Below, one piece after another: positions 1,548 to 48,342 of a DNA stretch of 48,492 bases; within the stretch, counting starts at the first letter, position 1; each line of letters begins with the position of its first letter. The translations under genes and the position numbers were made by a program. The notes beneath the pieces are model-generated. The model did no database searches. It was not told the DNA's origin and saw only the letters and a list, made by a program, of their open reading frames with translations. Source of the DNA: Candidatus Borkfalkia faecavium (GTDB taxonomy: Bacteria > Bacillota > Clostridia > Christensenellales > Borkfalkiaceae); contig DXEW01000010.1 of the NCBI GenBank assembly GCA_019114755.1, forward strand, positions 1-48,492, read 5' to 3'.

Positions 1548-2261
1548 ATGAAGAGTTTATTACGGACGGGCCTGCCGGCGCTGCTGCTGGCCGCCCTGTT
1601 TGCGGCGATGCCTCTGTGCGCTCTGCCGCACGGCGGCGTGCCGACGGCGATCGTACAGGCGGCAGAACAGACGCTGCGGCGGGGCAGCCGCGGCGAGGCG
1701 GTGAAAACGGTGCAGCAAAAGCTCATCCGCTGGGGGTATTTGAACGGCAAGGCGGACGGCATCTTCGGCGCCGCCACCGAAAAGGCGGTGCGGTATTTTC
1801 AGCGCAAAAACGGGTTGAAGGAAGACGGCATCGTCGGGCCCGCCACCTTCGAGGCACTGGGCATGCGCGCTTCCGGCGGCACGCAGGCGGGCGGGGCGGA
1901 CAGCTACACCAACGAAGACACCTATCTCTTGGCGCGCTGCATCTACGGCGAGGCGCGGGGCGAGCCGTATACCGGCCAGGTCGCCGTGGGGGCGGTGGTG
2001 TTGAACCGCGTCAAAAGTCCGGAATTCCCCAATACCATCGCCGGCGTCATCTACCAGCGGCATGCCTTTACCGCCGTCACCGACGGGCAGATCAACCTCA
2101 CGCCCGACGACAAGGCCATCTCCGCCGCCCGCGACGCCATGAACGGCTGGGACCCGACCGGCGGCTGCCTGTATTATTACAACCCCGCCACCGCCACCAG
2201 CGAGTGGATCTTTACGAGGGAAGTGGTCATGACGATCGGCAGGCATGCGTTTGCCATTTAG
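1548..2261 (+). CDS. sleB: Spore cortex-lytic enzyme SleB
   Basis: This 237-residue protein has a signal peptide (1 to ~39). A PG_binding_1 peptidoglycan-binding domain follows (~42-105, with LRRGSRGEAVKTVQQKL and DGIFGAATEKAV). A C-terminal cell-wall hydrolase domain spans ~122-237, with the typical YGEARGE (catalytic Glu135) and GQVAVGAVVLNRV. SleB is a lytic transglycosylase that degrades muramic-lactam cortex during germination. The RBS AGGAGG lies 4-5 nt upstream of the ATG. ypeB, its usual partner, follows after ~310 nt; normally the pair is nearly contiguous, but here a repeat element separates them and begins at the sleB stop codon. Confidence 0.93.
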   Translation: MKSLLRTGLPALLLAALFAAMPLCALPHGGVPTAIVQAAEQTLRRGSRGEAVKTVQQKLIRWGYLNGKADGIFGAATEKAVRYFQRKNGLKEDGIVGPATFEALGMRASGGTQAGGADSYTNEDTYLLARCIYGEARGEPYTGQVAVGAVVLNRVKSPEFPNTIAGVIYQRHAFTAVTDGQINLTPDDKAISAARDAMNGWDPTGGCLYYYNPATATSEWIFTREVVMTIGRHAFAI

Positions 2262-2468
2262 TTCACGAAATTTCTTTCGAGCTGACGAAAGAAATTTCCG
2301 TGAGGAAGGGGGAAACCTGTTGTTCGCCGCCTTACAGCGGCTCTGCAACGGTTTCTCCCCTCGTCTCGCGGCATTTAAGGGCACACCAGTTATAAAACGC
2401 CGCGAGACTTCACCCTCATCCGTATGCTTATAAGGGAAAAAAGGAAAAAGTGTGATTTTTCCTTTTTT
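2261..2468 (+). repeat. Four-hairpin repeat element, copy A
   Basis: This is copy A of the dispersed hairpin element. It starts with GTTCAC, whose first G is the last base of the sleB stop codon. Stem P1 pairs CACGAAATTTCTTTC with GAAAGAAATTTCCGTG around the loop GAGCTGAC. P2 pairs GGGGGAAACC with GGTTTCTCCCC. P3 pairs GTCTCGCGGC with GCCGCGAGAC around a loop containing AAGGGCACACC and TTATAAA. P4 pairs AAAAAAGGAAAAA with TTTTTCCTTTTTT. It fills most of the sleB-ypeB gap. Positions 2490-2527 then carry a fragment (CCGCGCCTTCCTCGTCTG) repeated at 6541-6578. Confidence 0.8.
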
Positions 2469-2575
2469 GAAAATCGTTTGAAATAAAATGCCGCGCCTTC
2501 CTCGTCTGGCGGGCGACTGCTTGCAAACGGCGAACGTCGGACGATAATAGAAATCAATTTTTCGGAGAATAAAAC

Positions 2576-4183
2576 ATGAAAAAGGAATATGAAAGCTCGT
2601 CGGGGGCGGATAAGGTAGAGGCCATCGCCCGCGGCGAAAAGGAAAAGCGCGGCGAAGCGGAAGACCGCCGCGAAGAAGCGGGGCAGGAAATGAACCGCCT
2701 GGAAGAAGACAAGCGGCGCGAGGCGGAGGCCGCGGCGGCGCGCGTTGCGGCTGCGCAGGAACGGCGCGCCGCCAAAGAGGAAAAACAGGCTGCCAAAGAG
2801 GAAAAATTGGCGGCCAAAGAAGAAAAGCGCGCCGCCAAAGAAGAGAGGGCAAAGGGCCGCAGGCAGCCCGGCTTCGGCGGCTGGCTGGCGGCGGTGGTGT
2901 CGCTGTCCGTCGCCGTGCTGGCGCTCGGTGCCATCGTCACCGTCGGCTATTTCGACCTCGACGCCGCCCGCACGGGCATGGAAGGGGGATACCGCGAGGC
3001 GGTGTACGAATTTTCAGAACACGTCGAATCGCTGGACGCGGACCTCGCCAAGGCGCGCCTCGCTTCCGGCAATTACGAGATGCAAAAACTGTTGTCGGAT
3101 ATCCTCGTCGAGAGCGAGCTGGCGGAAAAGTGCATCGAATATTTCCCCGTCGAAGAGCGAGACGCGGAGCAGCTGACGGCATTTTTCAACCGCACGGGCA
3201 GCTGCGCGCGCACCTTCTTATATAAATTGGCGGCGGGCGGCAGTTTAGACGAGGGGGAAGAAGAGGCGATCGAGTATATGTACCGGACGGTGCGGCAGCT
3301 GTGCGAGGCGACGCCCGCGCTGGTGCGCAGTGCCGAAGAGGGGGCTTTGGAAGAACTTGTATCGCCGCAGGGCGACTTCGCCGCCGCCTTCGGCGAGCTG
3401 TCCGCCCCCACCGCCGAAGCGCCCAAGCGCATACAGCAGGGCCCCTTTTTGCAGGCGGGCGGGCAGCAAGAGGGCGCGTTCCTCAAAGACGCGCCCGCCC
3501 TGTCGCAGCGGGAGGCGACCGCCCGCGCGGAGGCGTATTTTCGCGGCCACGGCGTGCGGCAGCTGCACATGACGGGCAAGACGGAGGGGCGCACGCCCGC
3601 CTATACCTTCGAATTCACCGATAAGGCGGGACGCGAATACACCGCGCAGCTGACCGAGCGGGGCGGGTATCTGCTGCTGCTCGAATCGTACAAGGCGTGC
3701 AGCGCCCACAACTACGACGCCGAAAACTGCACCGACATCGCCTCTGCCTTTTTAGAGCGCTGCGGCTATGCCTCGGTGCGGCCGGTGTGGGCGAGCGAGG
3801 CGGGCACCGACTGCTGCGTCACCTTCGTCTGCGAGCAGGAGGGCGTGCTCTGCTATCCCGACCGCATCCTCGTCAAGGTGTGTGAAGATGCGGGCATCGT
3901 CACGGGGGTGGACGCGCGCGCTTACCTTGCCAACCACGCCGCGCGCGAACTGCCCGAGGCGCGCCTGCCGCAGAGCCGCGTGGAAGAAAACGCCGCCGCC
4001 CGCCTTACAGACAGCAGCGTGCGCCCCGCCCTCATCCGTGCAGACGGGCGCGAGGTGCTCTGCTATGAGGTGACGGGCGAATACGGCGGCAGGCGATACT
4101 TTGCCTATATCGACGCCGACAGCGGCGAAACGCTGGAGCTGCGCGTGGTCGTCGGAACAGACAGGGGAGAAGTGATCCGCTGA
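2576..4183 (+). CDS. ypeB: Germination protein YpeB with extended coiled-coil N terminus
   Basis: This 535-residue protein has an N-terminal highly charged segment (1-98) containing four consecutive heptads of the type AAKEEKx (~65-92). One membrane segment follows (~101-124), then a long extracytoplasmic part with the YpeB-type helical region and C-terminal PepSY-like domains (for example LSQREATARAEAYF and YFAYIDADSGETLELRVV). YpeB is required for SleB to be stable and localised in the spore. Position directly after sleB supports the call. Family members are usually ~450 residues with the membrane helix near the N terminus, so the ~95-residue charged extension is unusual. The start is supported by CGGAG upstream of the ATG, but internal starts cannot be excluded. 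Confidence 0.85.
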   Translation: MKKEYESSSGADKVEAIARGEKEKRGEAEDRREEAGQEMNRLEEDKRREAEAAAARVAAAQERRAAKEEKQAAKEEKLAAKEEKRAAKEERAKGRRQPGFGGWLAAVVSLSVAVLALGAIVTVGYFDLDAARTGMEGGYREAVYEFSEHVESLDADLAKARLASGNYEMQKLLSDILVESELAEKCIEYFPVEERDAEQLTAFFNRTGSCARTFLYKLAAGGSLDEGEEEAIEYMYRTVRQLCEATPALVRSAEEGALEELVSPQGDFAAAFGELSAPTAEAPKRIQQGPFLQAGGQQEGAFLKDAPALSQREATARAEAYFRGHGVRQLHMTGKTEGRTPAYTFEFTDKAGREYTAQLTERGGYLLLLESYKACSAHNYDAENCTDIASAFLERCGYASVRPVWASEAGTDCCVTFVCEQEGVLCYPDRILVKVCEDAGIVTGVDARAYLANHAARELPEARLPQSRVEENAAARLTDSSVRPALIRADGREVLCYEVTGEYGGRRYFAYIDADSGETLELRVVVGTDRGEVIR

Positions 4184-4217
4184 GCGCAGCGTATACAACC
4201 GACATCCGCAGCGATGG

Positions 4218-4256
4218 CCGCGTTTTTGCCGCAGGGCAGAAACGCGGCTTTGTTTT
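4218..4256 (+). terminator. Terminator after ypeB
   Basis: The stem CCGCGTTTTTGCC / GGCAGAAACGCGG is followed by CTTTGTTTT. It separates the germination genes from the next transcription unit, whose promoter begins at 4260. Confidence 0.8.
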
Positions 4257-4259
4257 ATG

Positions 4260-4288
4260 TTGACATTCCCGTGTAAAAAAAGTATAAT
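4260..4288 (+). promoter_or_regulatory. Consensus sigma-A promoter for the SecB-like/fabZ unit
   Basis: A perfect TTGACA (4260-4265) lies 17 bp from a perfect TATAAT (4283-4288). The start codon of the next gene lies 43 bp downstream. Strong constitutive expression is expected. Confidence 0.88.
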
Positions 4289-4331
4289 AATAGAAAAAGC
4301 AGAAATGCAATTTGTTCGGAGCAATCAATCC

Positions 4332-4757
4332 ATGGAAAAGATCAATCTGTCGCTGAAAGGGATCCGCGTAGACGAGATGACCTTCAAACTCAACGCCGTC
4401 CGTCAGCAGCCCAAAATGGAGCTCAAACCCACCTTTTCGCGCCGTGTGCGCCGTGCCGTCGAGAACGAAAAGATGATCTTCGTGTCGCTGACGGTCAAGA
4501 TCGAAAAGACGGAAGAGTCTCCCAAGCCCTTCGATCTGGAAGTGACCTATACCGGCCTGTTCGAGTCTGACGCCACCGACGAGGCTTCCCGCCGCGCCGC
4601 CGTCATCGAGGGGACCAAGATCATCTACCCCTATCTGCGCGCGGGCGTCACCACCCTCACGACCGCGGCCCTGGCCGCGCCAATCGTGCTGCCCGTGGTG
4701 GGCGGCTCCATCTTCCCCGAAGATAACGAGCCGGAAAGCGACGGCCTCTACAGCTGA
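4332..4757 (+). CDS. SecB-like protein
   Basis: This is a 141-residue protein. I chose the ATG at 4332 because GGAG lies 10 nt upstream and an earlier in-frame ATG would overlap the promoter. The fold signature resembles the SecB superfamily: an N-terminal strand region, then PFDLEVTYTGLF (~78-89), then a helix with TKIIYPYLRAGVTTLTT and the C-terminal APIVLPVV. SecB proteins are tetrameric holdase chaperones; in Gram-positives, SecB-like proteins are found alone or with toxin-antitoxin systems. Here it is the first gene of a unit with fabZ, 68 nt downstream, which is not a known functional pairing. The family assignment rests on pattern recognition and its role is unknown. Confidence 0.6.
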   Translation: MEKINLSLKGIRVDEMTFKLNAVRQQPKMELKPTFSRRVRRAVENEKMIFVSLTVKIEKTEESPKPFDLEVTYTGLFESDATDEASRRAAVIEGTKIIYPYLRAGVTTLTTAALAAPIVLPVVGGSIFPEDNEPESDGLYS

Positions 4758-4825
4758 GGCGCATATTTTTGAACGTGAAGCGGGCGGAAAGCCGCGCCGC
4801 AAATTCTGAAGCGAGAGGGAAGACC

Positions 4826-5251
4826 ATGAATAGAGAAGAGATCAAAAATATCCTGCCCCACCGCGAGCCCATGTTGCTTTTGGATGAGGTGAACGTGACC
4901 GAAGAAGAGGGCACGCCCGTCTCCGTCGGCAAATACGCGGTGCGGGGCGACGAATTCTTTTTGCAGGGGCATTTCCCCGGCAACCCCATCGTGCCCGGCG
5001 TCATCCAGTGTGAGATGATCGCCCAGACCGCCGTGGCGCTGCTGCCGGACGTCAAGGGCACCCCCCTGTATACGGGGCTGAACAACGTCAAATTCAAAAA
5101 CCCGCTGCTGCCCGGCGACACCGCGGTGATGACCGTGCAGCTGACGGCGCGCAAGGGGATCTTCTGCTTTGCCAAGGGCAAGCTGGAGGCAAACGGCAAG
5201 CTGTGCACGAGCGCAGAATTTTCATTCGCCATCGTACCGCCGCGCGCATAA
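4826..5251 (+). CDS. fabZ: 3-hydroxyacyl-ACP dehydratase FabZ
   Basis: This 141-residue hot-dog-fold dehydratase removes water from 3-hydroxyacyl-ACP in the fatty-acid elongation cycle. The N terminus ILPHREPMLLLDEV and the active-site segment GHFPGNPIVPGVIQCEMIAQ are typical, with catalytic His49 and Glu63. The ATG at 4826 was chosen for its GAGAGGGA Shine-Dalgarno and for its match to the family N terminus; an upstream in-frame ATG at 4769 would add 19 atypical residues. It is followed by a strong terminator, so it is transcribed with the SecB-like gene and separately from fabH and the rest of the fab genes. Confidence 0.95.
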   Translation: MNREEIKNILPHREPMLLLDEVNVTEEEGTPVSVGKYAVRGDEFFLQGHFPGNPIVPGVIQCEMIAQTAVALLPDVKGTPLYTGLNNVKFKNPLLPGDTAVMTVQLTARKGIFCFAKGKLEANGKLCTSAEFSFAIVPPRA

Positions 5252-5254
5252 GGC

Positions 5255-5284
5255 ACGGCGCGCAAGATTGCGCGCCGTTTTTTG
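5255..5284 (+). terminator. Terminator after fabZ
   Basis: The perfect stem ACGGCGCGCAA / TTGCGCGCCGT has a 2 nt loop and is followed by a run of T. It separates fabZ from the fabH promoter. Confidence 0.9.
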
Positions 5285-5357
5285 TCTGCCTTCGGGCAAA
5301 GTTCGCCCTTTTTCGTCCTCCGCAGGGGGCGTTTGGCCGCTTTTTTGGCAATAAGGC

Positions 5358-5390
5358 TTGACTAAATAGGGCATATCTACTATAATAATG
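5358..5390 (+). promoter_or_regulatory. Promoter of the fabH-led gene cluster
   Basis: TTGACT (5358-5363) lies 17 bp from TATAAT (5381-5386). An imperfect inverted repeat CTACT / AGTAG brackets the -10 region (5377-5396) and could be an operator. I see no match to the FapR or FabT consensus sites. Confidence 0.8.
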
Positions 5391-5492
5391 CAGTAGGGTG
5401 TTTTTGGAAAAGAACGCCCTGCCGCCGCGCGGGGCAAATTGTCGGGCAAATTCTTTCGCCCGCGCCCTTTGCGCATCTTTTCGGAGAAAGCC

Positions 5493-6455
5493 ATGTCATT
5501 TTACATTGCGGGGACGGGCAGCGCCCTTCCCGAAAAGGTCGTCTCCAACGACGACCTCGCACAGTTTTTAGATACTTCCGACGAGTGGATCTTCACCCGC
5601 ACGGGCATCCACCGCCGCCACGTGCTCACGCACGAGCGGCTGGACGAGCTCGCCATCCGCTCGGCGCAGATCGCCCTGCAAGACGCGGGCATCGGCGGCG
5701 AGGAGGTGGACCTCATCCTCTGCGCCACCATGCGCGGAGATACCTTCACCCCTTCCCTCGCCTGCACCGTGGGCGAGGCGGTGGGTTCGCACGCGCCCTC
5801 GTTCGACGTCAACGCCGCCTGCGTGGGCGTGCTGTACTGCATGGAGATCGCCGACAGCTTTTTTGTCGCCGGCAAGGCGAAGACGGCGCTGATCGTCTCT
5901 GCCGAGGCGATGAGTAAGCTGGTCGACTGGACAGACCGCTCTACCTGCGTGCTGTTCGGCGACGGCGCCGGGGCGATGGTCGTGCGCGCGGGCGAAGGCC
6001 GCCTGGCTGGCGAACTGTCTACCAGGCCCGATTCGCACGTCATCCGCATGCCCAACATCGAGGGGCTGAACAGCCCGTATAACCGGATAGAGCAGGAAAA
6101 GCTCGCCATGTATATGGACGGCGGCGAAGTGTATAAGTTCGCCGTCAACGCCATGGGCAGCAACATCGCCGAGGCGTGCGCGCAGGCGGGGCTGACCCCT
6201 GCCGATATCGACTGGTATCTCCCGCACCAGGCCAACGTGCGCATCATCGATGCCAGCCTGCGCAAGTTCAAGATCGATAAGAGCAAAGTGCTTTTGAACA
6301 TCGCCGAGTGCGGCAACATGAGCGCCACCTCCGTCATGGTCCTCTTAGACGAATACGCCAAAAAGGGCACCTTCCACAAGGGAGATAAGCTCTTGTTTGT
6401 GGCCTTCGGCGGGGGGCTGACGAGCGGGGCGGTCATCGTCACCTGGCAGAAGTAA
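5493..6455 (+). CDS. fabH: 3-oxoacyl-ACP synthase III FabH
   Basis: This 320-residue thiolase-fold enzyme condenses acetyl-CoA (or a branched primer) with malonyl-ACP to start fatty-acid synthesis. The catalytic triad is visible as Cys110 (DVNAACVGVLYC), His245 (YLPHQANVRI) and Asn275 (AECGNMSATS). The N terminus FYIAGTGSALPEKVVSNDDL is typical. The ATG at 5493 has GGAG 6-9 nt upstream; an upstream in-frame ATG at 5439 would add 18 non-family residues. It is followed by ~640 nt of repeats before acpP, so co-transcription with the rest of the cluster is uncertain. Confidence 0.96.
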   Translation: MSFYIAGTGSALPEKVVSNDDLAQFLDTSDEWIFTRTGIHRRHVLTHERLDELAIRSAQIALQDAGIGGEEVDLILCATMRGDTFTPSLACTVGEAVGSHAPSFDVNAACVGVLYCMEIADSFFVAGKAKTALIVSAEAMSKLVDWTDRSTCVLFGDGAGAMVVRAGEGRLAGELSTRPDSHVIRMPNIEGLNSPYNRIEQEKLAMYMDGGEVYKFAVNAMGSNIAEACAQAGLTPADIDWYLPHQANVRIIDASLRKFKIDKSKVLLNIAECGNMSATSVMVLLDEYAKKGTFHKGDKLLFVAFGGGLTSGAVIVTWQK

Positions 6456-6540
6456 ATTTGCAAGCATTCATCGCGTCATACCATGTCAGGCTTGCGTTTT
6501 GCCTCGGTCATGTACGTCTGTGTACACTCCCGTCGGCAAA

Positions 6541-6578
6541 GCCGCGCCTTCCTCGTCTGACGCGCGACTGCTTCCAAA
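6541..6578 (+). repeat. Short dispersed repeat (fragment shared with 2490-2527)
   Basis: The string CCGCGCCTTCCTCGTCTG plus the following GCGACTGCTT is shared with positions 2490-2527 next to hairpin element copy A. A small hairpin region around 6508-6535 (CATGTACGTCTGTGTACACTC) precedes it. It is noncoding. Confidence 0.6.
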
Positions 6579-6604
6579 TTTCGTTCTCCCCAAGCATGAT
6601 ATGG

Positions 6605-6820
6605 GTTCACGAAAATCTCGGCGAGCTGACGCCTGCGATTTTCCGTGAGTTGAAGAAAACCCCGCTGTCCGCCTTTGGCGGAGCAGCCGGAGTTTTCCTC
6701 TGTGCCGCACATTTAGGGGCACACCTTTTATAAACGTGCGGCACATTCACCTTTCCTGCAAGAGCCTTGCGGCAAATTGGGGGCGCTGGCGCAAAAGCGT
6801 GGTTTTGCTTGCGCGAGTAT
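6605..6820 (+). repeat. Four-hairpin repeat element, copy C
   Basis: The element starts with GTTCACGAAAATCTCGGCGA. P1 pairs TCACGAAAATC with GATTTTCCGTGA. P2 pairs AAAACCCCG with CGGAGTTTTC, with a nested GTCCGCC / GGCGGAG. P3 pairs GTGCCGCAC with GTGCGGCAC around a loop with GGGGCACACC and TTATAAA. P4 is GCGCAAAAGC / GCTTGCGC. It lies 149 nt after the fabH stop, in the same orientation. Confidence 0.8.
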
Positions 6821-6838
6821 TTATTTAGAGAGTCCTCA

Positions 6839-7052
6839 ATTCTACATTTTACATTTTACATTCTACATTTATAAAACGAGTCAAGCGCCTCCCGCTTCGG
6901 CGGGGAGGAGAACTGCCCCCCCTGTCATCCTGAGTAAGTGCGGCGAAGCCGCACGCATCGAAGGATCTCTGGAAAGGGCATCATCCTTAATTCTACATTC
7001 TACATTCTACATTTATAAAAAAGTCAAACGCCTCCCGCTTCGGCGGGGCGGA
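6839..7052 (+). repeat. Two copies of a TTCTACATT/CGGGAGG repeat flanking a REP-like repeat
   Basis: Positions 6839-6908 and 6989-7052 are direct repeats of about 65 bp. Each consists of ATTCTACATTTTACA units followed by ATAAAA, GTCAA and a hairpin GCCTCCCGCTTCGGCGGGG. Between them (6922-6968) lies a palindromic TGTCATCCTGAG...CGAAGGATCTC element of the REP-like type found throughout the window. No ORF or tRNA is recognisable; the acpP Shine-Dalgarno follows at 7082. Confidence 0.7.
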
Positions 7053-7094
7053 GATACAAATCCAAAAAAGATAAAAAAGAAAGGAGACATCATT

Positions 7095-7322
7095 ATGGAA
7101 ACATTGGAAAAGTTGAAGGAGATCCTCAGCGAGTGCAAGGGTGAAGACCTCGATATCACCCCCGAAACCACCTTCGAAGAGCTGGACTTCGATTCCCTCG
7201 ACAAGGTAGACATCGTCATGCAGATCGAAGAGGCGTATGATATTTCCCTCGGCGACAACATGCAGCTCTCCACCGTCGGCGAGCTCATCCAGAAGATCGA
7301 CGAGGCCGTCGCCGCAAAATAA
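7095..7322 (+). CDS. acpP: Acyl carrier protein
   Basis: This 75-residue acidic four-helix protein carries the growing acyl chain. The 4'-phosphopantetheine attachment site is Ser34 in ELDFDSLDKVDIVMQIEEAY. Length and sequence are typical. The ATG follows AAAGGAGA with good spacing. fabK starts 19 nt downstream, so acpP is probably the first gene of the contiguous acpP-fabK-fabD unit. Confidence 0.96.
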   Translation: METLEKLKEILSECKGEDLDITPETTFEELDFDSLDKVDIVMQIEEAYDISLGDNMQLSTVGELIQKIDEAVAAK

Positions 7323-7341
7323 GCAAGCACAGGCGTAAAAA

Positions 7342-8283
7342 ATGCAGACAAAACTGACAAAATTGTTGGGTATCCAATACCCGATCATCCAGGGAGGCAT
7401 GGCGTGGATCGCCGATGCCTCTTTGGCGAGCGCTGTTTCCAACGCAGGGGGGCTGGGCATCATCTCGGCGATGAACGCCGATGCCGACTGGGTGCGCGCC
7501 GAGATCAAAAAGTGCCGCACCATGACGGATAAACCCTTCGGCGTCAACATCATGCTGATGAGCCCGCACGTCGAAGAGGTGGCGAAGATGGTCGCCGAAG
7601 AAAAGGTGCCCGTCGTCACCACGGGCGCGGGCAACCCTTCGCGGTTTGTGAAGATGTGGAAAGAAGCGGGCACGGTGGTCATCCCCGTGGTGGCTTCCAC
7701 TGCCCTTGCCAAAATGGTCGAGCGCGCGGGCGTAGACGCGGTCATCGCCGAAGGCGGCGAGAGCGGCGGGCACGTCGGCGATCTCACCACCATGGCGCTG
7801 GTGCCGCAGGTCGTGGATGCGGTCAAGCTCCCCGTCGTGGCGGCGGGCGGCATCGGCGACGGCCGCGGCATGGTGGCGGCGTTCGCGCTGGGCGCCTGCG
7901 GCGTGCAGATGGGTACCCGCTTTTTGGTGGCGGACGAATGCACCGTTTCCGAAGAGTATAAAAAGAAGGTGCTCGCCGCCAAAGACATCTCTACCATGGT
8001 CACGGGCAAGCGCCTGGGCCATCCCGTCCGCGCCATCAAAAACACCTATATGAACAGCTACGCCAAGCTGGAGGCGAATTCCAACATCCCCGACGAAGAG
8101 CTGGAGCAGTTCGGCGTCGGTTCCCTGCGCAAGGCCGCCAAAGAGGGCAATGCCGAAGAGGGCTGCTTCCTCGCGGGGCAGATCGCCGGCATGGTCAAAA
8201 AGCGCCAGCCCGCCAAAGAGATGATCGAAGAGATCATGGCCCAGGCAGAGCAGATGATGGAGGGCGTCAAATGGGACGTGTAG
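7342..8283 (+). CDS. fabK: Enoyl-ACP reductase II FabK
   Basis: This 313-residue FMN-dependent TIM-barrel enzyme performs the last reduction of the elongation cycle (trans-2-enoyl-ACP to acyl-ACP). The sequence shows PIIQGGMAWIADASLASAVS at the N terminus, AEGGESGGHVG (~135-145), PVVAAGGIGDGRG and GTRFLVADE, all typical of the nitronate monooxygenase/FabK family. It is assigned to FabK rather than nitronate monooxygenase because it is embedded between acpP and fabD. No fabI is visible, so this is probably the sole enoyl reductase of the cluster; FabK enzymes are known to resist triclosan. Its 3' end overlaps fabD by 13 nt. Confidence 0.95.
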   Translation: MQTKLTKLLGIQYPIIQGGMAWIADASLASAVSNAGGLGIISAMNADADWVRAEIKKCRTMTDKPFGVNIMLMSPHVEEVAKMVAEEKVPVVTTGAGNPSRFVKMWKEAGTVVIPVVASTALAKMVERAGVDAVIAEGGESGGHVGDLTTMALVPQVVDAVKLPVVAAGGIGDGRGMVAAFALGACGVQMGTRFLVADECTVSEEYKKKVLAAKDISTMVTGKRLGHPVRAIKNTYMNSYAKLEANSNIPDEELEQFGVGSLRKAAKEGNAEEGCFLAGQIAGMVKKRQPAKEMIEEIMAQAEQMMEGVKWDV

Positions 8284-9107
8284 CCTTTTTGTTCGCCGGC
8301 CAGGGCGCGCAGGTGCCCGGCATGGCGGCAGACGTCAAAGACCTGCCCAAGGTCAGGCATCTGTTTGAAGTTGCCGAAGGCATCCGCCCCGGCATCGTAG
8401 ACAAGATGCTTTGCGGCACGCAGGAAGAGCTCAACCGCACCCTGCTCACCCAGCCGACCATGTTTCTGGCAGACCTCGCCTACGCCTATGCGAAGGAAGA
8501 GGAGATCGGCACCCCCGCCTGCGCCTGCGGCTTTTCGGTAGGGGAAGTGCCCGCGCTCACCTTTGCGGGCGTGTTTTCGGAAGAAGACGGCTTCCGCGCC
8601 ATCTGCAAGCGCGCGGAGCTGATGGAAGCATACACGCAGCGGGTACAGGGCTGCATGATCGCCGTGGTCAAGCTCACGCGAGACAAGGTAGAAGCGCTGT
8701 GCGACGGCGTCTCTACCCATCCCGCCAACTACAACGGCGCCCTGCAGACGGTCGTTGCCTGCCGCGCCGAGGCCGAGGCGGAGTTCTCCGCCAAGGTCAA
8801 AGAGGCGGGCGGCAGGGCGATGAAGCTGCGCGTTTCGGGCATGTTCCACTGCCCCGAACTGGCGGAAGAGGCCGCCGCCTTTGAGGCGTTCCTGCGCACC
8901 CTGCCCATGGGCGCGCCCCGCCTCGACGTGTACGCCAACCTCACGGCGCAGCCGTACGCGGGCGACTTTGCCGCCACGCTGGCGGCGCAGATGCGCTCCC
9001 CCGTGCGCTTTACCGATACCGTCGCCAACATGCGTGCGGCGGGTGTAGACGAATTTATCGAAGTCGGCCCCGGCAAAGTGCTCACGGGCCTTGTCCAGCG
9101 CGGGTAA
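8271..9107 (+). CDS. fabD: Malonyl-CoA:ACP transacylase FabD
   Basis: This 278-residue enzyme transfers malonyl from CoA to ACP. FLFAGQGAQVPGM (7-18) and FIEVGPGKVLTGLV near the C terminus are typical. The nucleophile is Ser89, but in the motif GFSVGE rather than the usual GHSxGE, so the conserved His before the nucleophile is Phe. The catalytic His193 (SGMFHCPE) is present. Its start codon lies inside the end of fabK, indicating translational coupling. The stop codon overlaps a short inverted repeat (9106-9143). Confidence 0.94.
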   Translation: MGRVAFLFAGQGAQVPGMAADVKDLPKVRHLFEVAEGIRPGIVDKMLCGTQEELNRTLLTQPTMFLADLAYAYAKEEEIGTPACACGFSVGEVPALTFAGVFSEEDGFRAICKRAELMEAYTQRVQGCMIAVVKLTRDKVEALCDGVSTHPANYNGALQTVVACRAEAEAEFSAKVKEAGGRAMKLRVSGMFHCPELAEEAAAFEAFLRTLPMGAPRLDVYANLTAQPYAGDFAATLAAQMRSPVRFTDTVANMRAAGVDEFIEVGPGKVLTGLVQRG

Positions 9108-9143
9108 CCAAGTCAAAGCAAAAGGGTTTATTTTGACTTGGTC
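9106..9143 (+). repeat. Short inverted repeat AACCAAGTCAAA...TTTGACTTGGT
   Basis: The arms ACCAAGTCAAA and TTTGACTTGGT surround ~14 nt. The left arm (AACCAAGTCAAAGCAAAAG) closely resembles the terminal inverted repeat of the element at 16660-16942 (AACCAAGCCAAAGCA). It may be an internally deleted relative, or simply an attenuating hairpin between fabD and fabG. Confidence 0.55.
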
Positions 9144-9187
9144 AAGTTCCCGTTCCGGTTCTTGATTTTTTTGAAGGAAAAGTAAAG

Positions 9188-9928
9188 ATGAACGAAAAAC
9201 GTGTCGCGCTCGTCACGGGCGCGGGCAGGGGCATCGGCGCCACCATCGCGCGCACCCTCGCCGCCGACAATACCGATATCGCCGTCGTCGATTACGGCGA
9301 AGAGAGCAGCGCCGCCGCGGCACTGCAGGCGATCGCCGAAGCGGGCGCCGCCGTGCGCTATTACCGCTGCGACGTCTCCGATTTTTCCGCCGCCAAGGCG
9401 GTGGCAGACAGCGTCGCCAAAGACTTCGGCAAGATCGACATCCTCGTCAACAACGCGGGCGTCACCGCCGATAAGCTGATCATGCGCATGAGCGAAGAAG
9501 ACTGGGACCGCGTGCTCTCCATCAACCTCAAGGGCTGCTTCAACATGGTCAAGCACGTCACGCCCTATATGATGCGCAAGCGCTACGGCCGCATCGTCTC
9601 CATCAGCTCGGTGGTGGGCCTGATGGGCAACGCGGGGCAGGCCAACTACGCCGCCTCGAAGGCGGGCATCATCGGCCTCACCAAAACGGTCGCCAAAGAA
9701 TTCGGCTCGCGCGGCATCACCGCCAACGCGGTCGCGCCCGGCTTTATCAAGACCGCCATGACCGACGCCCTCACCGAAGAGCAGAAGCAGGCCATGTATA
9801 AAATGATCCCGCTCGGCCGCCTGGGCGAAACGCAAGACATTGCCGACGCGGTCAAATTCCTCGTCTCCGACGCAGCCGCCTATATCACCGGCGTGGTGTT
9901 AAAGGTAGACGGCGGCATGTATATTTAA
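9188..9928 (+). CDS. fabG: 3-oxoacyl-ACP reductase FabG
   Basis: This 246-residue short-chain dehydrogenase reduces 3-oxoacyl-ACP with NADPH. The nucleotide-binding motif TGAGRGIG (10-17), NNAG, and the catalytic Ser141, Tyr154 and Lys158 (NYAASKAG) are present. The C terminus ITGVVLKVDGGMYI is typical of FabG. AAGGAAAAG precedes the ATG. It is followed by a 418 nt repeat-filled gap before fabF. Confidence 0.95.
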   Translation: MNEKRVALVTGAGRGIGATIARTLAADNTDIAVVDYGEESSAAAALQAIAEAGAAVRYYRCDVSDFSAAKAVADSVAKDFGKIDILVNNAGVTADKLIMRMSEEDWDRVLSINLKGCFNMVKHVTPYMMRKRYGRIVSISSVVGLMGNAGQANYAASKAGIIGLTKTVAKEFGSRGITANAVAPGFIKTAMTDALTEEQKQAMYKMIPLGRLGETQDIADAVKFLVSDAAAYITGVVLKVDGGMYI

Positions 9929-9980
9929 GGGTTTTGGAAGGGCTCGGAAAGGAGCACCGCCCCCGCCCGTCGTGCGGGCA

Positions 9981-10066
9981 GAATGTAGAATGTAAAATGG
10001 TAAATTGCGGAAGAGCAAAAAATATTTTTTATTGTGTCCATAATTCTACATTTTACATTTTACACT
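9981..10066. repeat. Inverted pair of ATTCTACATTTTACA repeats
   Basis: AGAATGTAGAATGTAAAATG (from 9980) and ATTCTACATTTTACATTTTA (from 10042) face each other across ~40 nt and could form a long imperfect hairpin in the fabG-fabF interval. Confidence 0.65.
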
Positions 10067-10111
10067 TACCATTTGACCCGCTCGCCGAGGTTTCCGCGAG
10101 CATAAATGCTT

Positions 10112-10329
10112 GAAAAAGCAAAAACCACGCTTTTTGCTTTTTCCCCTCACAGCGAGGAGCTGCAAGCGGAAAGAGTGAATTTGCGCGGCATTCATAAAAC
10201 GAGTGCCCTGAAAAGCCGCGCAAAGAGAGAAAACCGGGCGCAGAGCGTTGCGTAAGCAAAAGCGAACGCCGGGTTTGCTCTCAAATCACGACAATTCGCA
10301 GCCGCCGTCGCGGCGAGAATTGTGTGAAC
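10112..10329 (-). repeat. Four-hairpin repeat element, copy E
   Basis: Read on the minus strand, it begins GTTCACACAATTCTCGC and shows P1 (CACACAATTC / GAATTGTCGTG), P2 (AAACCCGGCG / CGCCCGGTTT) and P3 (TTTGCGCGGC / GCCGCGCAAA, loop with CAGGGCACTCG and TTTTATGAA). P4 is GAAAAAGCAAAAA / TTTTTGCTTTTTC. P4 and its flank are nearly identical to copy F. It lies antisense to and 17 bp upstream of fabF, inside the fab cluster. Confidence 0.8.
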
Positions 10330-10346
10330 AATATATGGAGGTTATC

Positions 10347-11579
<1,233 letters not shown>

Positions 11580-11829
11580 CGCCGAAACCGAGGCGGCTTT
11601 TGCCGCCGAGGCGCGGCTTATAAACGGAGAATGCGCTGCGCTTTGCCGCGGGCGCATTTTCGGCACTTTTGTCCGCTGTGCGGGGCGCGGCAGCGACCGC
11701 GCCGCAGGGGGCGTCAACAAGAACAAACACTGCAATTTGTCCGCTTACGGGGCGGCCCGAGCCTTCCCGCGGCGGATACAGGGAAAAAGCCCGCTTTTTT
11801 GCGGGCACAGAAAGAAGGAGAGAAGGCAA
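11580..11829 (+). other. fabF-accB leader region with hairpins
   Basis: This 250 nt interval contains two clear hairpins: GAGGCGGC / GCCGCC with a TTTT loop near 11590-11612, and GCCCGC / GCGGGC around TTTTTT near 11790-11808. No gene, tRNA or consensus promoter is obvious. The second hairpin lacks a trailing T-tract, so it is not a standard terminator. Confidence 0.4.
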
Positions 11830-12297
<468 letters not shown>

Positions 12298-12315
12298 GCG
12301 GCGCGGTGAACAGCC

Positions 12316-13662
12316 ATGTTTAGTAAGATCCTCATCGCAAACCGCGGCGAGATCGCCGTGCGCATCATCCGCGCCTGCAACGAGATGGGCATCCGCACCG
12401 TCGCCGTCTATTCGGAGGCGGACGCGCAGGCGCTGCACGTCAATTTGGCGGACGAGAGCTATTGCATCGGCCCCGCCCTTCTCAAAGACAGCTACCTCAA
12501 CATGACCGCCATCATCGATGTCGCCATCGCCACCGGCTGCCAGGCCATCCACCCCGGTTACGGGCTGTTGAGCGAAAACGCCCGCTTTGCCGAGCTGTGC
12601 GAAAAGTGCAACATCAAGTTCATCGGCCCGCATTATTCGGTCATCTCGAAAATGGGCGATAAAGACGAAGCCCGCCGCACCATGAAAAAGGCGGGCGTGC
12701 CCGTCGTGCCCGGGCTGGACGAAATTACCGACATCGCCGCGGCAAAGGCCTTCGCTTCCGAGATCGGCTACCCCGTCATCGTCAAGGCGGCGGCGGGCGG
12801 CGGCGGTAGGGGCATCCGCATCGTCTGGAAAGAAGAAGACTTTGAAAACGCCGTGCGCACCGCCTCGGCGGAGGCGCAGGCCGCCTTCGGCAACGGCAAA
12901 TGCTATCTGGAAAAATACCTCACCGACGTCAAGCACGTCGAAATGCAGATCGTGGCGGATAACCAGGGCAACGTGGTGTGCCTGGGCGAGCGCGACTGCT
13001 CGCTGCAGCGCAAAAACCAGAAGCTCATCGAAGAGAGCCCCTGCGTCACCTTGAAGCCCGCCGTGCGCGAAGAGATGATGCGCGCCGCCGTGCTCGCGGC
13101 AAAAACGGTCAATTATACGAGCCTGGGCACCATCGAGTTTTTGCTCGATCGGCAGGATCATTTCTATTTTATGGAAATGAACACCCGCCTGCAGGTAGAG
13201 CACCCCGTCACCGAGTATGTGACGGGCATCGACATCGTCAAATGGCAGATCCGCATCGCCGCGGGCATCGAGTTCATCTATAAGCAGGAAGACATCCGCC
13301 TGCGCGGCTGCGCCATCGAGTGCCGCATCAATTCGGAAGATGCGCGCAACAACTTCCGCCCCAGCTGCGGGCAGATCAAGTTCATGCACATCCCCGGCGG
13401 CCCGTGGGTGCGCTTCGATACCGCCATCTATCAGGACTACGTCATCCCGCCCTATTACGACAGCATGATCGGCAAGCTCATCGTCTACGCGCGCGAGCGC
13501 ACCGAGGCCATCCGCAAGATGCAGGCGGCGCTGTGCGAGCTGGTCATCGACGGCGTCAACACCAATGCCGAACTTTCCAGCGACATCCTCGCTAGGCCCG
13601 AGTTCAAAGACGGCAGTTATTGTACCAATTTCTTGGATAAATTTTTGAAAGATTATCATTGA
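12316..13662 (+). CDS. accC: Acetyl-CoA carboxylase, biotin carboxylase subunit
   Basis: This 448-residue ATP-grasp enzyme carboxylates the biotin of AccB using bicarbonate and ATP. The N-terminal ILIANRGEIAVRIIRACNEM, HPGYGLLSENARFAE, the glycine-rich loop AAAGGGGRGIRIV and EMNTRLQVEHPVTE are all present. Its length is normal. The Shine-Dalgarno is weak (GCGGTG), so translation may be coupled to accB. A ~250 nt gap precedes accD. Confidence 0.96.
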   Translation: MFSKILIANRGEIAVRIIRACNEMGIRTVAVYSEADAQALHVNLADESYCIGPALLKDSYLNMTAIIDVAIATGCQAIHPGYGLLSENARFAELCEKCNIKFIGPHYSVISKMGDKDEARRTMKKAGVPVVPGLDEITDIAAAKAFASEIGYPVIVKAAAGGGGRGIRIVWKEEDFENAVRTASAEAQAAFGNGKCYLEKYLTDVKHVEMQIVADNQGNVVCLGERDCSLQRKNQKLIEESPCVTLKPAVREEMMRAAVLAAKTVNYTSLGTIEFLLDRQDHFYFMEMNTRLQVEHPVTEYVTGIDIVKWQIRIAAGIEFIYKQEDIRLRGCAIECRINSEDARNNFRPSCGQIKFMHIPGGPWVRFDTAIYQDYVIPPYYDSMIGKLIVYARERTEAIRKMQAALCELVIDGVNTNAELSSDILARPEFKDGSYCTNFLDKFLKDYH

Positions 13663-13912
13663 TGCAGGTTGCAGGCACACGGACACTTGACTTTGTATGA
13701 CAAAAAAAGAAGCATTTCAGCGACAGGCCGGCTACGGCAGAAAGAAAAACAGATATAAATGGGCTGCCGACGCGCAGAAATGGGCGCTCAGCCAAAAACA
13801 TAAAAACGCGCAGGCCAACCGCTTCCTGGTAGCGCAGCGGTCGGCGCAGGCGCGCAGCGGAACGGGTTGGCGGCGGATGGCATCCGTGCGGCTCCCGGAA
13901 GGAGAATGGACC

Positions 13913-14796
<884 letters not shown>

Positions 14797-14800
<4 letters not shown>

Positions 14801-15561
14801 GCGCATATGACGTCGTATTAAAGAGCCGCGAAAAGGGCAGGCCCACCGCGGTCAGGTATATTTCCAACATCGTCGAAGGGTTTATCGAGCTGCACGGCGA
14901 CCGCCGCTTTGCCGACGACCGCGCCGTCATCGGCGGCGTGGGCACCATCGGCGGCAGGCCGGTCACCGTCATCGGCATCGAAAAGGGAGAAGATACCGCC
15001 ACCCGCCTCGAACATAACTTCGGCTGCGCCAATCCCGAAGGCTACCGCAAGGCGGTGCGCCTGATGAAGGAGGCGGAAAAATTCCACCGCCCCGTGCTCT
15101 GCTTTGTGGATACTTCGGGTGCGTACTGCGGCATCGGCGCCGAAGAGCGCGGCCAAAGCGAGGCCATCGCCATGTCTATCATGGAAATGATCAGGCTGAA
15201 GACGCCCACCCTCTCTATCATCATCGGCGAAGGCGGCAGCGGCGGCGCGCTCGGCCTGTGCGCGGCAGACGAGGTGTGGATCACGGAAAATGCGACCTAT
15301 TCGGTCATTTCGCCCGAGGGCTGCGCTTCCATCCTCTGGAAAGACAGCTCCAAGGTCGCCGAAGCCAGCGAATGCCTGAAAATGACGGCGGAAGATCTGG
15401 CAAAGCTCGGCGCCGTCGAAGAGGTCATCCCCGAAAACGGCTTTACCGACGCGTTTTACGCCGGCTTGAAGGAAAAGATCGCCGCCTTCTTTGCAGAAAA
15501 GAAGGCCGTCCCCGCCGAAGAGCTCGTCGAGGCGCGCTACCGCCGCTTCCGCAAATTTTAA
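14797..15561 (+). CDS. accA: Acetyl-CoA carboxylase, carboxyltransferase alpha subunit
   Basis: This 254-residue partner of AccD transfers the carboxyl group from biotin to acetyl-CoA. FIELHGDRRFADDRAVIGGV, FVDTSGAYCGIGAEERGQSE and GEGGSGGALGL are diagnostic. It lacks the ~50-residue N-terminal extension of the E. coli enzyme, as in many Firmicutes. The ATG overlaps the accD stop (ATGA), indicating coupled synthesis of the two subunits. A DegV-family gene follows after ~118 nt. Confidence 0.95.
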
Positions 15562-15679
15562 GCCCCCCCGCGCGCTTGTTTTGCGTCCGTGAAAGGTTCA
15601 CGGGCGAAGGAAAGCGCACGTTCCCCCGCCGCGCAAGCGGCCGTACGAAAGCCCGCCCCGCGGGCATAGGAGGAGAGAT

Positions 15680-16495
15680 ATGATCGCTATCGTCACCGAT
15701 TCCACGGTCGGGTATTCCACGGCGGAGATCGCCAGCCGCGGCATCCTCAGCGAGGTGCCCGTCAATTACCAGATCGGCCAAAACTTTTACGAAGAATACG
15801 CGTCCGACCGCAACGGAAACTTTCTGCCCCTGATGGCGGGGCAGCCGCTGTGCAAAACGGCGCAGCCCTCCCTCAACAACTTCATCGCCACCTTCCGCTC
15901 CCTCGTCGAGCGCGGGTGCGACGTCATCTGCCTCGTGCTCTCGTCGGCGCTGTCGGGTACCTACTCGTCCGCCTGCTTTGCGGCGCAGCAGGTGGGGGGC
16001 AACATCCGCGTGGTCGATTCCGGCACCATCGGCGCGGGCATGCACCTCTTGGCAGACGAGGCCGTCAACATGGCCAAGGGCGGCTTCGGCTTTGAAGAGA
16101 TCGTAAAACATCTCGAAAGTTTGAAGCGCAAGATCGGCATCGTGTTCACCGTCGAATCGCTCGACCGTCTGGCCGCGGGCGGGCGGCTGAACAACGCCAA
16201 GGCGAACACCTCCCTCAACCTGCGCCCCGTGTTCGATCTGAAGGGCAAGATCTTGTTCCGCCTCAACGCGCGCGGGCACAGGGAACGGCTGGACGAAATG
16301 TGCGCGCGCATCCCCGAAAACGCGCGCCGGCTGATCGTGGCGCGCTGCGGCGAGCGGACAGACGTTTCCGAATTTACCCAGATGCTGAAAAACCGCTTCC
16401 CCGCCGTCAACATCCACCAGCGCGTGCTCGGGCCCGTGCTCAGCATCCACACCGGCCCCGGCGCCTTCGGCGCGGCGTATATAACAAAAGAATGA
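15680..16495 (+). CDS. DegV/FakB-like fatty-acid-binding protein
   Basis: This 271-residue DegV-family protein has the N-terminal TDSTVGYS, a ligand-contact region CLVLSSALSGTYSSA (~92-106) and a VESLDRLAAGGRLNNAK segment (~160-176). DegV proteins bind a fatty acid, and FakB members present it to the FakA kinase to make acyl-phosphate. Its location directly after the fab/acc genes supports a lipid role, although no fakA is visible here. AGGAGGAGAG precedes the ATG. A hairpin repeat element starts 4 nt after the stop. Confidence 0.88.
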   Translation: MIAIVTDSTVGYSTAEIASRGILSEVPVNYQIGQNFYEEYASDRNGNFLPLMAGQPLCKTAQPSLNNFIATFRSLVERGCDVICLVLSSALSGTYSSACFAAQQVGGNIRVVDSGTIGAGMHLLADEAVNMAKGGFGFEEIVKHLESLKRKIGIVFTVESLDRLAAGGRLNNAKANTSLNLRPVFDLKGKILFRLNARGHRERLDEMCARIPENARRLIVARCGERTDVSEFTQMLKNRFPAVNIHQRVLGPVLSIHTGPGAFGAAYITKE

Positions 16496-16499
16496 TGTT

Positions 16500-16987
16500 G
16501 TTCACAAATTTTGTTTCAAGCTGATGAAACAAAATTTCGTGACCAAGGGGGAAACCTGCCGTGCGCGCGGCTTTGCCGTGCTGGCGGCGGTTTCTCCCCT
16601 CTGCGGCGCGCCTTTCGGGGCACGCCATTTTTTATGCGCGCCGCATTCACCTCCATCCAAACCAAGCCAAAGCAAGAAGACCCCGCCCTGAAAGGCGTCT
16701 TTTGCGCGCCTTGGGGCTCATCCTCATTGCAATACCTCTGGGGGTATTGCTGCTTCGTCTGTCGCCCCAATCCATCGCAAAATGCGCTCTTTCAGGGTGC
16801 GAAGCAATCGCAAGCGGGTAGATTGCCGCAGATGCAAGGCAAAGCCCGCAGGTAATATACAGACATATTGCCAAGGGCTTTAACGATGCAGATGTGGTGA
16901 GATACCCGCTTCCGATCGGGGTCTCTTTGCTTTGGCTTGGTTAAGCTCATAAGGGAAAAACGGCAAAAGTGTGATTTTGCCGTTTTT
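16500..16987 (+). repeat. Four-hairpin repeat element, copy B, split by an inserted element
   Basis: It starts GTTCACAAATTTTG 4 nt after the DegV-family stop. P1 pairs CACAAATTTTGTTTC with GAAACAAAATTTCGTG. P2 pairs GGGGGAAACC with GGTTTCTCCCC. P3 pairs TGCGGCGCGC with GCGCGCCGCA around a loop with GGGGCACGCC. The 3' part with P4 (ACGGCAAAA / TTTTGCCGT, loop GTGTGA) resumes at ~16943, after a 283 bp insertion at 16660-16942. Positions 17010-17100 carry a further 3' fragment like that of copy C. Confidence 0.78.
16660..16942. mobile_element. MITE-like element with ~26 bp terminal inverted repeats
   Basis: The left end AACCAAGCCAAAGCA and the right end TGCTTTGGCTTGGTT are inverted repeats that extend to ~26 bp, through GACCCCG / CGGGGTC. 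The interior has no ORF. It contains further hairpins: GCAATACC / GGTATTGC and a long stem-loop AAAGCCC...GGGCTTT enclosing GGTAATAT / ATATTGCC. It interrupts hairpin repeat copy B. No clear target duplication was seen. It could be a MITE or a mobile structured RNA. Confidence 0.75.
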
Positions 16988-17009
16988 TGAGAATTGTTTG
17001 GAATAAAAA

Positions 17010-17880: not shown

Positions 17881-17888
17881 GAGGCATC

Positions 17889-34657: not shown

Positions 34658-34752
34658 GTTCACACGTTCCTCGGCGAGCTGACGCCTGCGGAACGTCGTG
34701 ATTTGAAGACAACCCCGCGGGGCGCCGTACGGCTAGCCGCGGGGTTTTCCTC
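34658..34752 (+). repeat. Four-hairpin repeat element, copy D (5' half only)
   Basis: It starts GTTCACACGTTCCTCGGCGA. P1 pairs CACACGTTCC with GGAACGTCGTG. P2 pairs ACAACCCCGCGG with CCGCGGGGTTTT and is nearly identical to copy F. P3 and P4 are missing: the sequence switches at ~34752 to a different repeat, the inverse of 17251-17370. Confidence 0.75.
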
Positions 34753-45090: not shown

Positions 45091-45143
45091 GGCGCCAGCG
45101 CAGGCGGCGCATAACGCGCCGAGGAGGAAGACAAGGAAGATTA

Positions 45144-47764: not shown

Positions 47765-47873
47765 GGTTCACCCCTTCTTTTCGGGGCTTTGGCCCCGTAT
47801 GTATTTGCCCGCCTTAGGCGCGCGGGCGGCGCTTTGCCCGTCAAAGTGCGGCGGGGCTTTCGGTTCGCTTCCT

Positions 47874-47903
47874 ATTATAGCACCGTATACGGTGGCCTGT
47901 CAA
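47874..47903 (-). promoter_or_regulatory. nrdD promoter with a palindrome in the spacer
   Basis: On the minus strand, TTGACA (47898-47903) lies 18 bp from TATAAT (47874-47879). The spacer contains the perfect palindrome CACCGTATACGGTG (47881-47894), probably an operator. Confidence 0.75.
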
Positions 47904-47922
47904 TGGCTTATGCTACAATTTA

Positions 47923-47968
47923 TTCGATATTTTGTGAAAAATTTTTAACTTATGCACAATATATTGTG
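47923..47968 (-). promoter_or_regulatory. Paired NrdR boxes upstream of nrdD
   Basis: CACAATATATTGTG (47955-47968) is a perfect NrdR-type palindrome. TTCGATATTTTGTG (47923-47936) is a weaker match with one good half. Their centres are exactly 32 bp apart, the usual three-turn spacing of NrdR box pairs. Confidence 0.8.
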
Positions 47969-48119
47969 GAAATGTGCATAAGCGCGGCTGCCCGCCGCAC
48001 GCCTTTCCGCTGCCGCGACGTGCCCACACAATGCCCGTCCCCGCGCGCCGCATCCGCGACGCGCGCCCATTGTTTGCACCCGTGCGCTCCGCCGCGCTGG
48101 CTTGAAATAAACTCTCTAT

Positions 48120-48342
48120 CGTCCCATCGATTACTGAAAAAGCAAAAACCGCGCTTTTTGCTTTTTCCCTTTACAGCGAAGAGCTGCACGGGGAAAGGTG
48201 AATTTGCGCGGCGTTTATAAATCGTGAGCCCTTAATTGCCGCGCAAAGAGGAAAACCCCGCGGCTAGCCGAATGGCGCCCCGCGGGGTTGTCTTTCGATC
48301 ACGGAAAATCGCAGGCGGCAGCCCGCCGAGATTTTCGTGAAC
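48120..48342 (-). repeat. Four-hairpin repeat element, copy F, with 10 bp flanking direct repeats
   Basis: On the minus strand it starts GTTCACGAAAATCTCGGCGG. P1 pairs TCACGAAAATC with GATTTTCCGTGA. P2 pairs ACAACCCCGCGG with CCGCGGGGTTTT. P3 pairs TTTGCGCGGC with GCCGCGCAAA around a loop with AAGGGCTCACG and TTTATAAA. P4 pairs GAAAAAGCAAAAA with TTTTTGCTTTTTC. AACTCTCTAT flanks it at 48110-48119 and 48343-48352. It lies between the activase gene and nrdD, starting 6 nt after the activase stop. Confidence 0.82.

What the first reader, a model, noticed from the sequence alone, without database searches (positions are those of the whole stretch)
2261..48342. Dispersed ~220 bp element with four covarying hairpins (six copies)
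Copies at 2261-2468, 6605-6820, 16500-16987 (split), 34658-34752 (half), 10112-10329 (minus) and 48120-48342 (minus) share one plan: GTTCAC start, P1 hairpin, P2 with GGTTTTCC or GGTTTCTC, and P3 enclosing an (A)GGGCAC loop and a TTATAAA-like stretch, then TTCACC and P4. Stem arms differ strongly between copies but stay complementary. For example, P1 is AAATTTCTTTC/GAAAGAAATTT in one copy and AAATTTTGTTTC/GAAACAAAATTT in another. The loop is conserved. This is the signature of selection for RNA structure, in a mobile or at least dispersed unit. I do not recognise the family.
Basis: partly seen in the sequence, partly recalled or inferred. Interest (0 to 1): 0.82.

Follow-up and report, generated by a model that had tools for sequence, protein, structure and literature searches.

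The report
Shuffled hairpin elements in Borkfalkia genomes
A gut bacterium and many of its relatives carry dozens of copies of a small non-coding DNA element made of five hairpins, mostly set against gene ends; the hairpins appear to be swapped as whole palindromic units, so matching arms alone do not show that the element works as RNA.

Summary
All six copies are recovered by a covariance model, and the window's draft genome (near Candidatus Borkfalkia) holds at least 86 matches. 34 of 37 same-genus genomes and 15 of 297 across the order have it. The window has no Rfam match besides rRNA; one copy has no relative in phage or plasmid records. Paired changes far exceed shuffles (covariation score 0.610 against 0.185).

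'Selection for RNA structure' is only partly supported. In P1 and outer P3, 11 of 3655 cells are G-U and 24 A-C; tRNA stems of the genus give 15 and 1 of 204. P5 and inner P3 do favour G-U. At 21 gene-flank sites shared between genomes, P1 is replaced in 16, with 128 paired and 3 one-sided changes; neighbours sometimes stay. Best reading: hairpin cassettes swapped as whole palindromes and kept as DNA hairpins. How copies first spread is unknown: Y1 transposase, reverse transcriptase and IscB were not found in the 90%-complete genome. An RNA role is not excluded.

The parts
2261..2468 (+). full copy 1: P1-P2-P3-TTCACC-P4-P5; its first base is the last base of the stop codon of ORF 1548-2261
2263..2303 (+). 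P1 hairpin of copy 1 (loop GAGCTGAC)
2305..2362 (+). P2 hairpin of copy 1
2363..2408 (+). P3 hairpin of copy 1 (GGGCACACC loop, TTATAAA side), followed by TTCACC 2409-2414
2437..2468 (+). P5 hairpin of copy 1 (AAAAAGTGTGATTTTT tip)
6605..6818 (+). full copy 2; P1-P3 to 6751, P5 about 6784-6818 (core 6791-6808)
10112..10329 (-). full copy 3, head 17 bases before the ATG (10347) of the fabF-like gene; P5 10112-10143
16500..16981 (+). copy 4, interrupted between P3 and P5; P1-P3 16500-16651, P5 16962-16981
16660..16942 (.). separate 283-bp insert with 16-nt perfect terminal inverted repeats inside copy 4 (not part of the element)
   Evidence: parts of a similar insert in L085 and L096
34658..34782 (+). 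partial copy 5: P1, P2 and start of a long-form P3
48120..48342 (-). full copy 6; P5 48136-48167

Best explanation
The element is a non-coding intergenic repeat of about 220 bp built of five hairpin cassettes in fixed order, joined by short conserved linkers (TTTGAGG, CCTC, TTCACC). Shown here: many copies per genome, in both orientations and in tandem; a head (GTTCAC end) that usually lies next to a gene end; near-perfect Watson-Crick palindromes in P1 and outer P3; and, at matching gene flanks in different genomes, hairpins replaced as whole units while neighbouring hairpins can stay. Inferred: copies within a genome exchange hairpins by homologous recombination or gene conversion through the conserved linkers, perhaps started by cleavage of extruded DNA hairpins, and it is the folded single DNA strand (or cruciform) whose pairing is kept. 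The first insertion of a copy at a gene end needs an agent that I did not find.
For: At least 86 matches in the own genome at E <= 0.001 (150 of 1120 candidates scored). Covariation score 0.610 vs 0.185 +- 0.005 in shuffles and at most 0.133 in slid controls. P1 2245 of 2275 and outer P3 1361 of 1380 cells Watson-Crick; G-U 11, A-C 24, other 14; control, 17 distinct tRNAs from 276 same-genus loci: 15 G-U, 1 A-C of 204. Stems that differ at one pair position differ on both sides in 38 of 54 comparisons for P1 and 38 of 54 for P3. Cross-genome copies with >= 300 nt of matching head flank fall into 21 sites; taking the closest pair of each, P1 is replaced (>= 4 pairs) in 16, differs at 1-3 in 1 and is unchanged in 4; changes are 128 paired and 3 one-sided in P1, 66 and 0 in P3; in 2 sites P1 is replaced with outer P3 unchanged, in 1 the reverse. 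L225:2785 (G007) and L204:2432 (G026): P1 and P5 different, P2-P3 nearly identical. In 60 own-genome copies, 23 P1 and 24 P3 variants occur in 52 combinations. P1 loops keep one orientation, 97 forward, 0 reverse, 53 unclassified of 150. In G015, 24 of 32 copies share their exact P1 with another copy of that genome and 0 with three other genomes.
Against: P5 and inner P3 show more G-U than A-C (15 vs 6; 61 vs 3), as RNA selection would give. Only 6 of 1008 P1-P3 variant quadruples show all four combinations, so reassortment rests on few complete cases. P1 sharing is not always genome-specific: in G007 20 of 29 copies and in G026 10 of 35 have a P1 that also occurs in the other genomes, and in G026 only 8 of 35 recur within the genome. 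Repeated insertion at the same gene end could mimic some in-place replacement. Some head flanks are not genes but remnants or tails of another copy, the L225/L204 case included. No recombination event, break or DNA hairpin was observed directly; the genomes are drafts.
Confidence: 0.45

Rival explanations
1. Structured RNA acting in cis: transcribed from the adjacent gene as a 3' (or 5') untranslated element that ends, protects or regulates the message. Stems are kept by selection on RNA; loops GGGCACRC and N-YGYGR are contact sites.
For: P3 loop, TTCACC and linkers recur in copies of other genera while arms change. Heads within 150 bp of a gene lie at stops in 30 and at starts in 11 of 41 cases. 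G-U excess over A-C in P5 and inner P3. bcr1-bcr3 repeats of Bacillus cereus are often part of UTRs or operon spacers (PMC3446304, passages).
Against: G-U almost absent in P1 and outer P3; copies also stand in reverse orientation before start codons; in window 1-18000 a pattern scan finds only weak terminator-like sites at P5; hairpins replaced wholesale at matching flanks.
Confidence: 0.27
2. A non-autonomous transposon (MITE-like) moved in trans by a transposase; hairpins are its recognition ends.
For: Dispersal, both orientations, tandem and nested copies; matches per genome from 0 to more than 80 in one genus; 18 of 30 fabF loci have a match within 550 nt upstream and 12 do not. Flanks of 124 copies share words of 5 or more bases slightly more often than shuffled pairings (69 against about 56).
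Against: No clear target-site duplication; Y1 transposase 0 in the own genome and present in three genomes without the element; no reverse transcriptase found in the own genome; one copy has no relative in phage or plasmid collections. DDE and serine transposases and IS110 were not tested.
Confidence: 0.2
3. Replication template switching inside each palindrome copies one arm onto the other and so makes paired changes in one step, without exchange between copies.
For: Paired changes dominate even between nearest stems. Monttinen and Loytynoja 2022 (PMC8794818, abstract and passages) describe this mechanism.
Against: Loop inversions, one expected trace, were not seen: 97 forward, 0 reverse, 53 unclassified of 150 loops. 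Exact P1 variants recur at other sites of a genome, which points to exchange.
Confidence: 0.08

Closest known systems
bcr1 (and bcr2, bcr3) repeats of the Bacillus cereus group (bcr1 paper of 2004: title seen in reference lists only, not held; described in passages of PMC3446304 and listed in passages of PMC2267715)
   Same: Intergenic, over 100 bp, many copies, conserved secondary structure, mobile-element traits, found in UTRs
   Different: Different taxon; sequence not compared here; described as MITE-like; whole-hairpin replacement at fixed sites is not mentioned in the passages I saw
REP/REPIN elements with RAYT Y1 transposases (PMC3116915, passages; PMC8266576, search listing)
   Same: Hairpin-forming intergenic repeats, tandem clusters, arms with compensatory change
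   Different: REPINs have two conserved REP ends and a RAYT in the genome; here five hairpins and no Y1 transposase found in the own genome
BOX elements of Streptococcus pneumoniae (named in passages of PMC2267715; modular make-up recalled)
   Same: Intergenic, structured, modular
   Different: Here five hairpin slots each with many palindromic variants; sequence not compared
HEARO / IscB omegaRNA
   Same: Multi-hairpin element of about 200 nt in many copies (recalled)
   Different: No Rfam match in the window and no IscB found in the own genome

Membership tests
any Rfam 15 family | match at the family's gathering score | tested here: not met
   only LSU and 5S rRNA in the window; nothing credible in 2200-2600 at E up to 10
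REPIN/RAYT | Y1 (RAYT-type) transposase in the genome | tested here: not met
   0 matches to PF01797 in G000 (90% complete); 23 of 40 genus genomes have one, including G001, G004 and G033, which had no element
REPIN/RAYT | two conserved REP ends with tetranucleotide tag | not tested
   no tag search was run
HEARO/omegaRNA | IscB gene linked to the RNA | tested here: not met
   PF14239 over its cut-off in 1 of 40 genus genomes (G019), 0 in G000
HEARO/omegaRNA | match to the Rfam HEARO model | tested here: not met
group II intron, retron or DGR RNA | reverse transcriptase in the genome | tested here: not met
   PF00078 in 4 of 40 genus genomes, 0 in G000
MITE | target-site duplication | tested here: inconclusive
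   69 of 124 copies share 5 or more bases between flanks, about 56 in shuffled pairings; 10 or more bases in 3, about 0.5 expected; no fixed length or place
MITE | terminal inverted repeats | not tested
   element ends were not searched systematically; the tail end is not sharply defined
bcr1 | sequence homology to bcr1 | not tested
   no bcr1 sequence was fetched

The most novel reading that the evidence does not exclude
A class of bacterial intergenic element whose unit of inheritance is the palindrome: sites are stable for the time in which flanking DNA diverges by about 4-26%, while each hairpin slot is re-dressed from a genome-wide pool of perfect palindromes by recombination, so that strong covariation arises from a DNA-level process and not from RNA function.
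Probability: 0.3. Interest if true: 0.78.

Novelty: new variant of a known kind. Interest (0 to 1): 0.62.

Why it matters
Covariation is treated as the best evidence for functional RNA structure. Here is a large natural family (dozens of copies per genome in many members of one genus of gut bacteria, with relatives in other families of the order) in which covariation can be traced to replacement of whole hairpins. It gives a test set for separating RNA selection from DNA palindrome turnover, and, if the elements do act on neighbouring genes, a genus-wide layer of fast-changing gene boundaries.

Tried and rejected
Kissing of the P3 loop (GGGCACRC) with the P5 loop (GYGTG): fits copy 1 by eye, not copies 2, 3 and 6; dropped, not tested formally. 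P5 as a standard terminator: the pattern scan of window 1-18000 finds only weak sites at P5. Y1 transposase, IscB and reverse transcriptase as resident partners: not found in the own genome. Phage or plasmid carriage: no similar DNA in either collection for one copy; 18 viral stretches with a 16-base exact match hold no element at E up to 0.1. Gene content of element-free against element-bearing regions: 30 proteins scanned, no clear difference. G005 against G035 as a close pair with few and many copies: one contig 99.3% identical but likely mis-binned, so not used. A first tRNA control had used all loci fetched by then, named ones of other genera included; it is replaced by the same-genus one. 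Literature: searches listed nothing on such repeats in Borkfalkia or Christensenellales ('Borkfalkia' with 'repeats': 0 papers; 'Christensenellales' with 'hairpin' and 'intergenic': 0; of the 6,606 papers only 15 were listed); this covers only the open-licence library.
Full report
What was checked. Rfam 15 at gathering threshold finds only rRNA in the window, and a permissive scan around copy 1 gives only chance-level hits. Four copies fold 4.6 to 8.2 standard deviations better than dinucleotide shuffles. A covariance model of P1-P3 (R1, 13 copies) finds 86 matches at E <= 0.001 in the window's own draft genome (1,728,480 bases, 38 contigs, 90% complete). As 150 of 1120 first-look candidates were scored, 86 is a lower bound.

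Where it occurs. With R1, 34 of 37 genomes of the same genus (own included) and 1 of 24 others of the order match (at most 50 candidates scored per genome). With the genus-wide model R2, 15 of 297 genomes of the order match: 2 of the own genus, 8 of the 9 listed of a second genus of the family, 3 of a genus in another family, and 1 each in two more families, one of these weak (E 1.5e-5). Twelve listed genomes of three further genera of the own family have none. A class-wide draw of 391 genomes gives only the own genome and one of that second genus. Most of the distant copies keep the order P1, P2, P3, TTCACC; the AAAA-N-YGYGR-TTTT tip of P5 is seen in some (such as L335:1692, L338, L344) and not in others (L343), and P1 is doubtful in the weakest matches. 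The organism is close to Candidatus Borkfalkia: named relatives by FabF are Borkfalkia and 'uncultured Clostridia' or 'Firmicutes' bins; NCBI puts the genus in Christensenellales. The own record is not named.

Anatomy. Head GTTCAC; P1 of about 16 pairs with a GAGCTGAC-like loop; P2 long; P3 with GGGC(A/T)C loop and a TTATAAA-like side; TTCACC; weak P4; P5; then an AT-rich tail without a sharp end. Some copies have a long P3 with an inserted domain; at one shared site G007 has it and G026 does not.

Context. Among 53 intergenic groups (70 of 91 hits), 38 single-element ones with genes on both sides have the head at a median 12.5 bp from a gene and the tail at 194.5 bp; the head is the nearer end in 29 of 38. 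Heads within 150 bp lie at stop codons in 30 and start codons in 11 cases. Groups are +, -, ++, --, +++, ++++, +- or ++-; no -+ was seen (simple ORF calls, not a gene finder). Upstream of fabF, 18 of 30 loci (one per genome) have a match within 550 nt, 11 of them within 16 nt of the aligned gene start; others have a spacer of about 30 nt with none, such as L169 and L176. Copies are regionally confined: the 18 contigs without a listed match add up to 743,280 bp, and 220,000 bp sampled from seven of them had no R2 match.

Covariation and its meaning. On 143 distinct copies from relatives, 93.5% of cells pair against 68.3% in shuffles, and the covariation score is 0.610 against 0.185; slid controls reach 0.133. 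The alignment was fitted to the model, which leans towards the structure. But in P1 and outer P3, G-U makes up 11 of 3655 cells and A-C 24. The control, 17 distinct tRNAs from 276 same-genus loci, has 15 G-U and 1 A-C of 204 cells. In 60 own-genome copies P1 has 948 Watson-Crick, 2 G-U, 2 A-C and 6 other cells. Results against this: P5 has 15 G-U and 6 A-C of 902 cells in 78 distinct stems, counted only up to the second mismatch, and inner P3 61 and 3 of 385. P2 has 18 and 41 of 1935, with 223 other mismatches, partly misalignment. Stems that differ at one pair position differ on both sides in 38 of 54 cases in each of P1 and P3.

Replacement in place. Copies whose head flank matches over 300 nt or more between genomes (74-96% identity) give 43 distinct pairs, with P1 changes 275 paired and 12 one-sided and P3 170 and 1. 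These pairs are not independent: 15 come from the fabG-fabF spacer. Grouped into 21 sites with the closest pair of each, P1 differs at 4 or more pairs in 16, at 1-3 in 1, and is identical in 4; changes are 128 paired and 3 one-sided in P1, 66 and 0 in P3; P1 is replaced with outer P3 unchanged in 2 sites, the reverse in 1. The clearest case, L225:2785 (G007) and L204:2432 (G026), has different P1 and P5 around nearly identical P2 and P3, though its matched flank ends in a remnant of another copy. L180 and L181 share the 3' part from the P3 loop on and differ before it (by eye). Within the own genome 60 copies carry 23 P1 and 24 P3 variants in 52 combinations, though only 6 of 1008 variant quadruples show all four. 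Copies whose exact P1 recurs within the genome, and in the other three genomes: G015 24 and 0 of 32; G000 15 and 4 of 24; G026 8 and 10 of 35; G007 19 and 20 of 29, so the trend is not uniform.

Reading. I take these as hairpin cassettes exchanged between copies as whole palindromes, with conserved linkers as the homology. Shown: copy number, plan, paired change, replacement at matching flanks. Inferred: recombination as the route, DNA hairpins as the kept form, any function at gene ends. Partners tested and not found in the own genome: Y1 transposase, IscB, reverse transcriptase; the genome is about 90% complete, and DDE, serine and IS110 transposases were not tested. No clear target duplication stands out in 124 copies, with a slight excess of shared words.

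Known relatives. The nearest in kind are bcr1-type repeats of the Bacillus cereus group (PMC3446304 and PMC2267715, passages; the 2004 bcr1 paper is not held), REPINs (PMC3116915, passages) and BOX (named in PMC2267715, rest recalled). Template switching as a one-step source of paired changes is described in PMC8794818 (abstract and passages); the lack of inverted loops (97 forward, 0 reverse, 53 unclassified of 150) does not favour it as the main route here.

Noticed in passing
window 16660-16942: A 283-bp insert with 16-nt perfect terminal inverted repeats sits inside copy 4; parts of a similar insert are seen beside copies in L085 and L096, so it looks like a second, MITE-like repeat.
   Followed up: partly
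G000 contigs C7, C8, C10, C13, C14, C16, C18, C19, C22, C23, C29, C30, C32-C35, C37, C38: 743,280 bp of the own genome have no listed copy, while copies cluster elsewhere; G015 contigs C1 and C3 have none listed either.
   Followed up: partly
tails of several copies, e.g. window 6830-6880: Other short repeats gather on the tail side: TACATTTTACATT arrays, GGAGCGATAGAGAGTTTG, GATCCTTCGGC.
   Followed up: no
L095, L093, L075, L077, L070:5622, window 34658; L216 against L202: P3 has a long form with an inserted domain of roughly 100-150 nt at about the same place.
   Followed up: partly
G035:C14 and G005:C33: 99.3% identical over 4.2 kb although the two bins differ greatly in element number (117 and 7 matches); one bin is probably mixed.
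   Followed up: partly
window 17889-19475: ORF with a strong match to the Flg_new (Listeria-Bacteroides) repeat domain.
   Followed up: no
upstream of several heads, e.g. L090, L085, L093, L103, L105: A cut-off 5' half of another P1 stands directly before a complete copy, as if copies restart inside older ones.
   Followed up: partly
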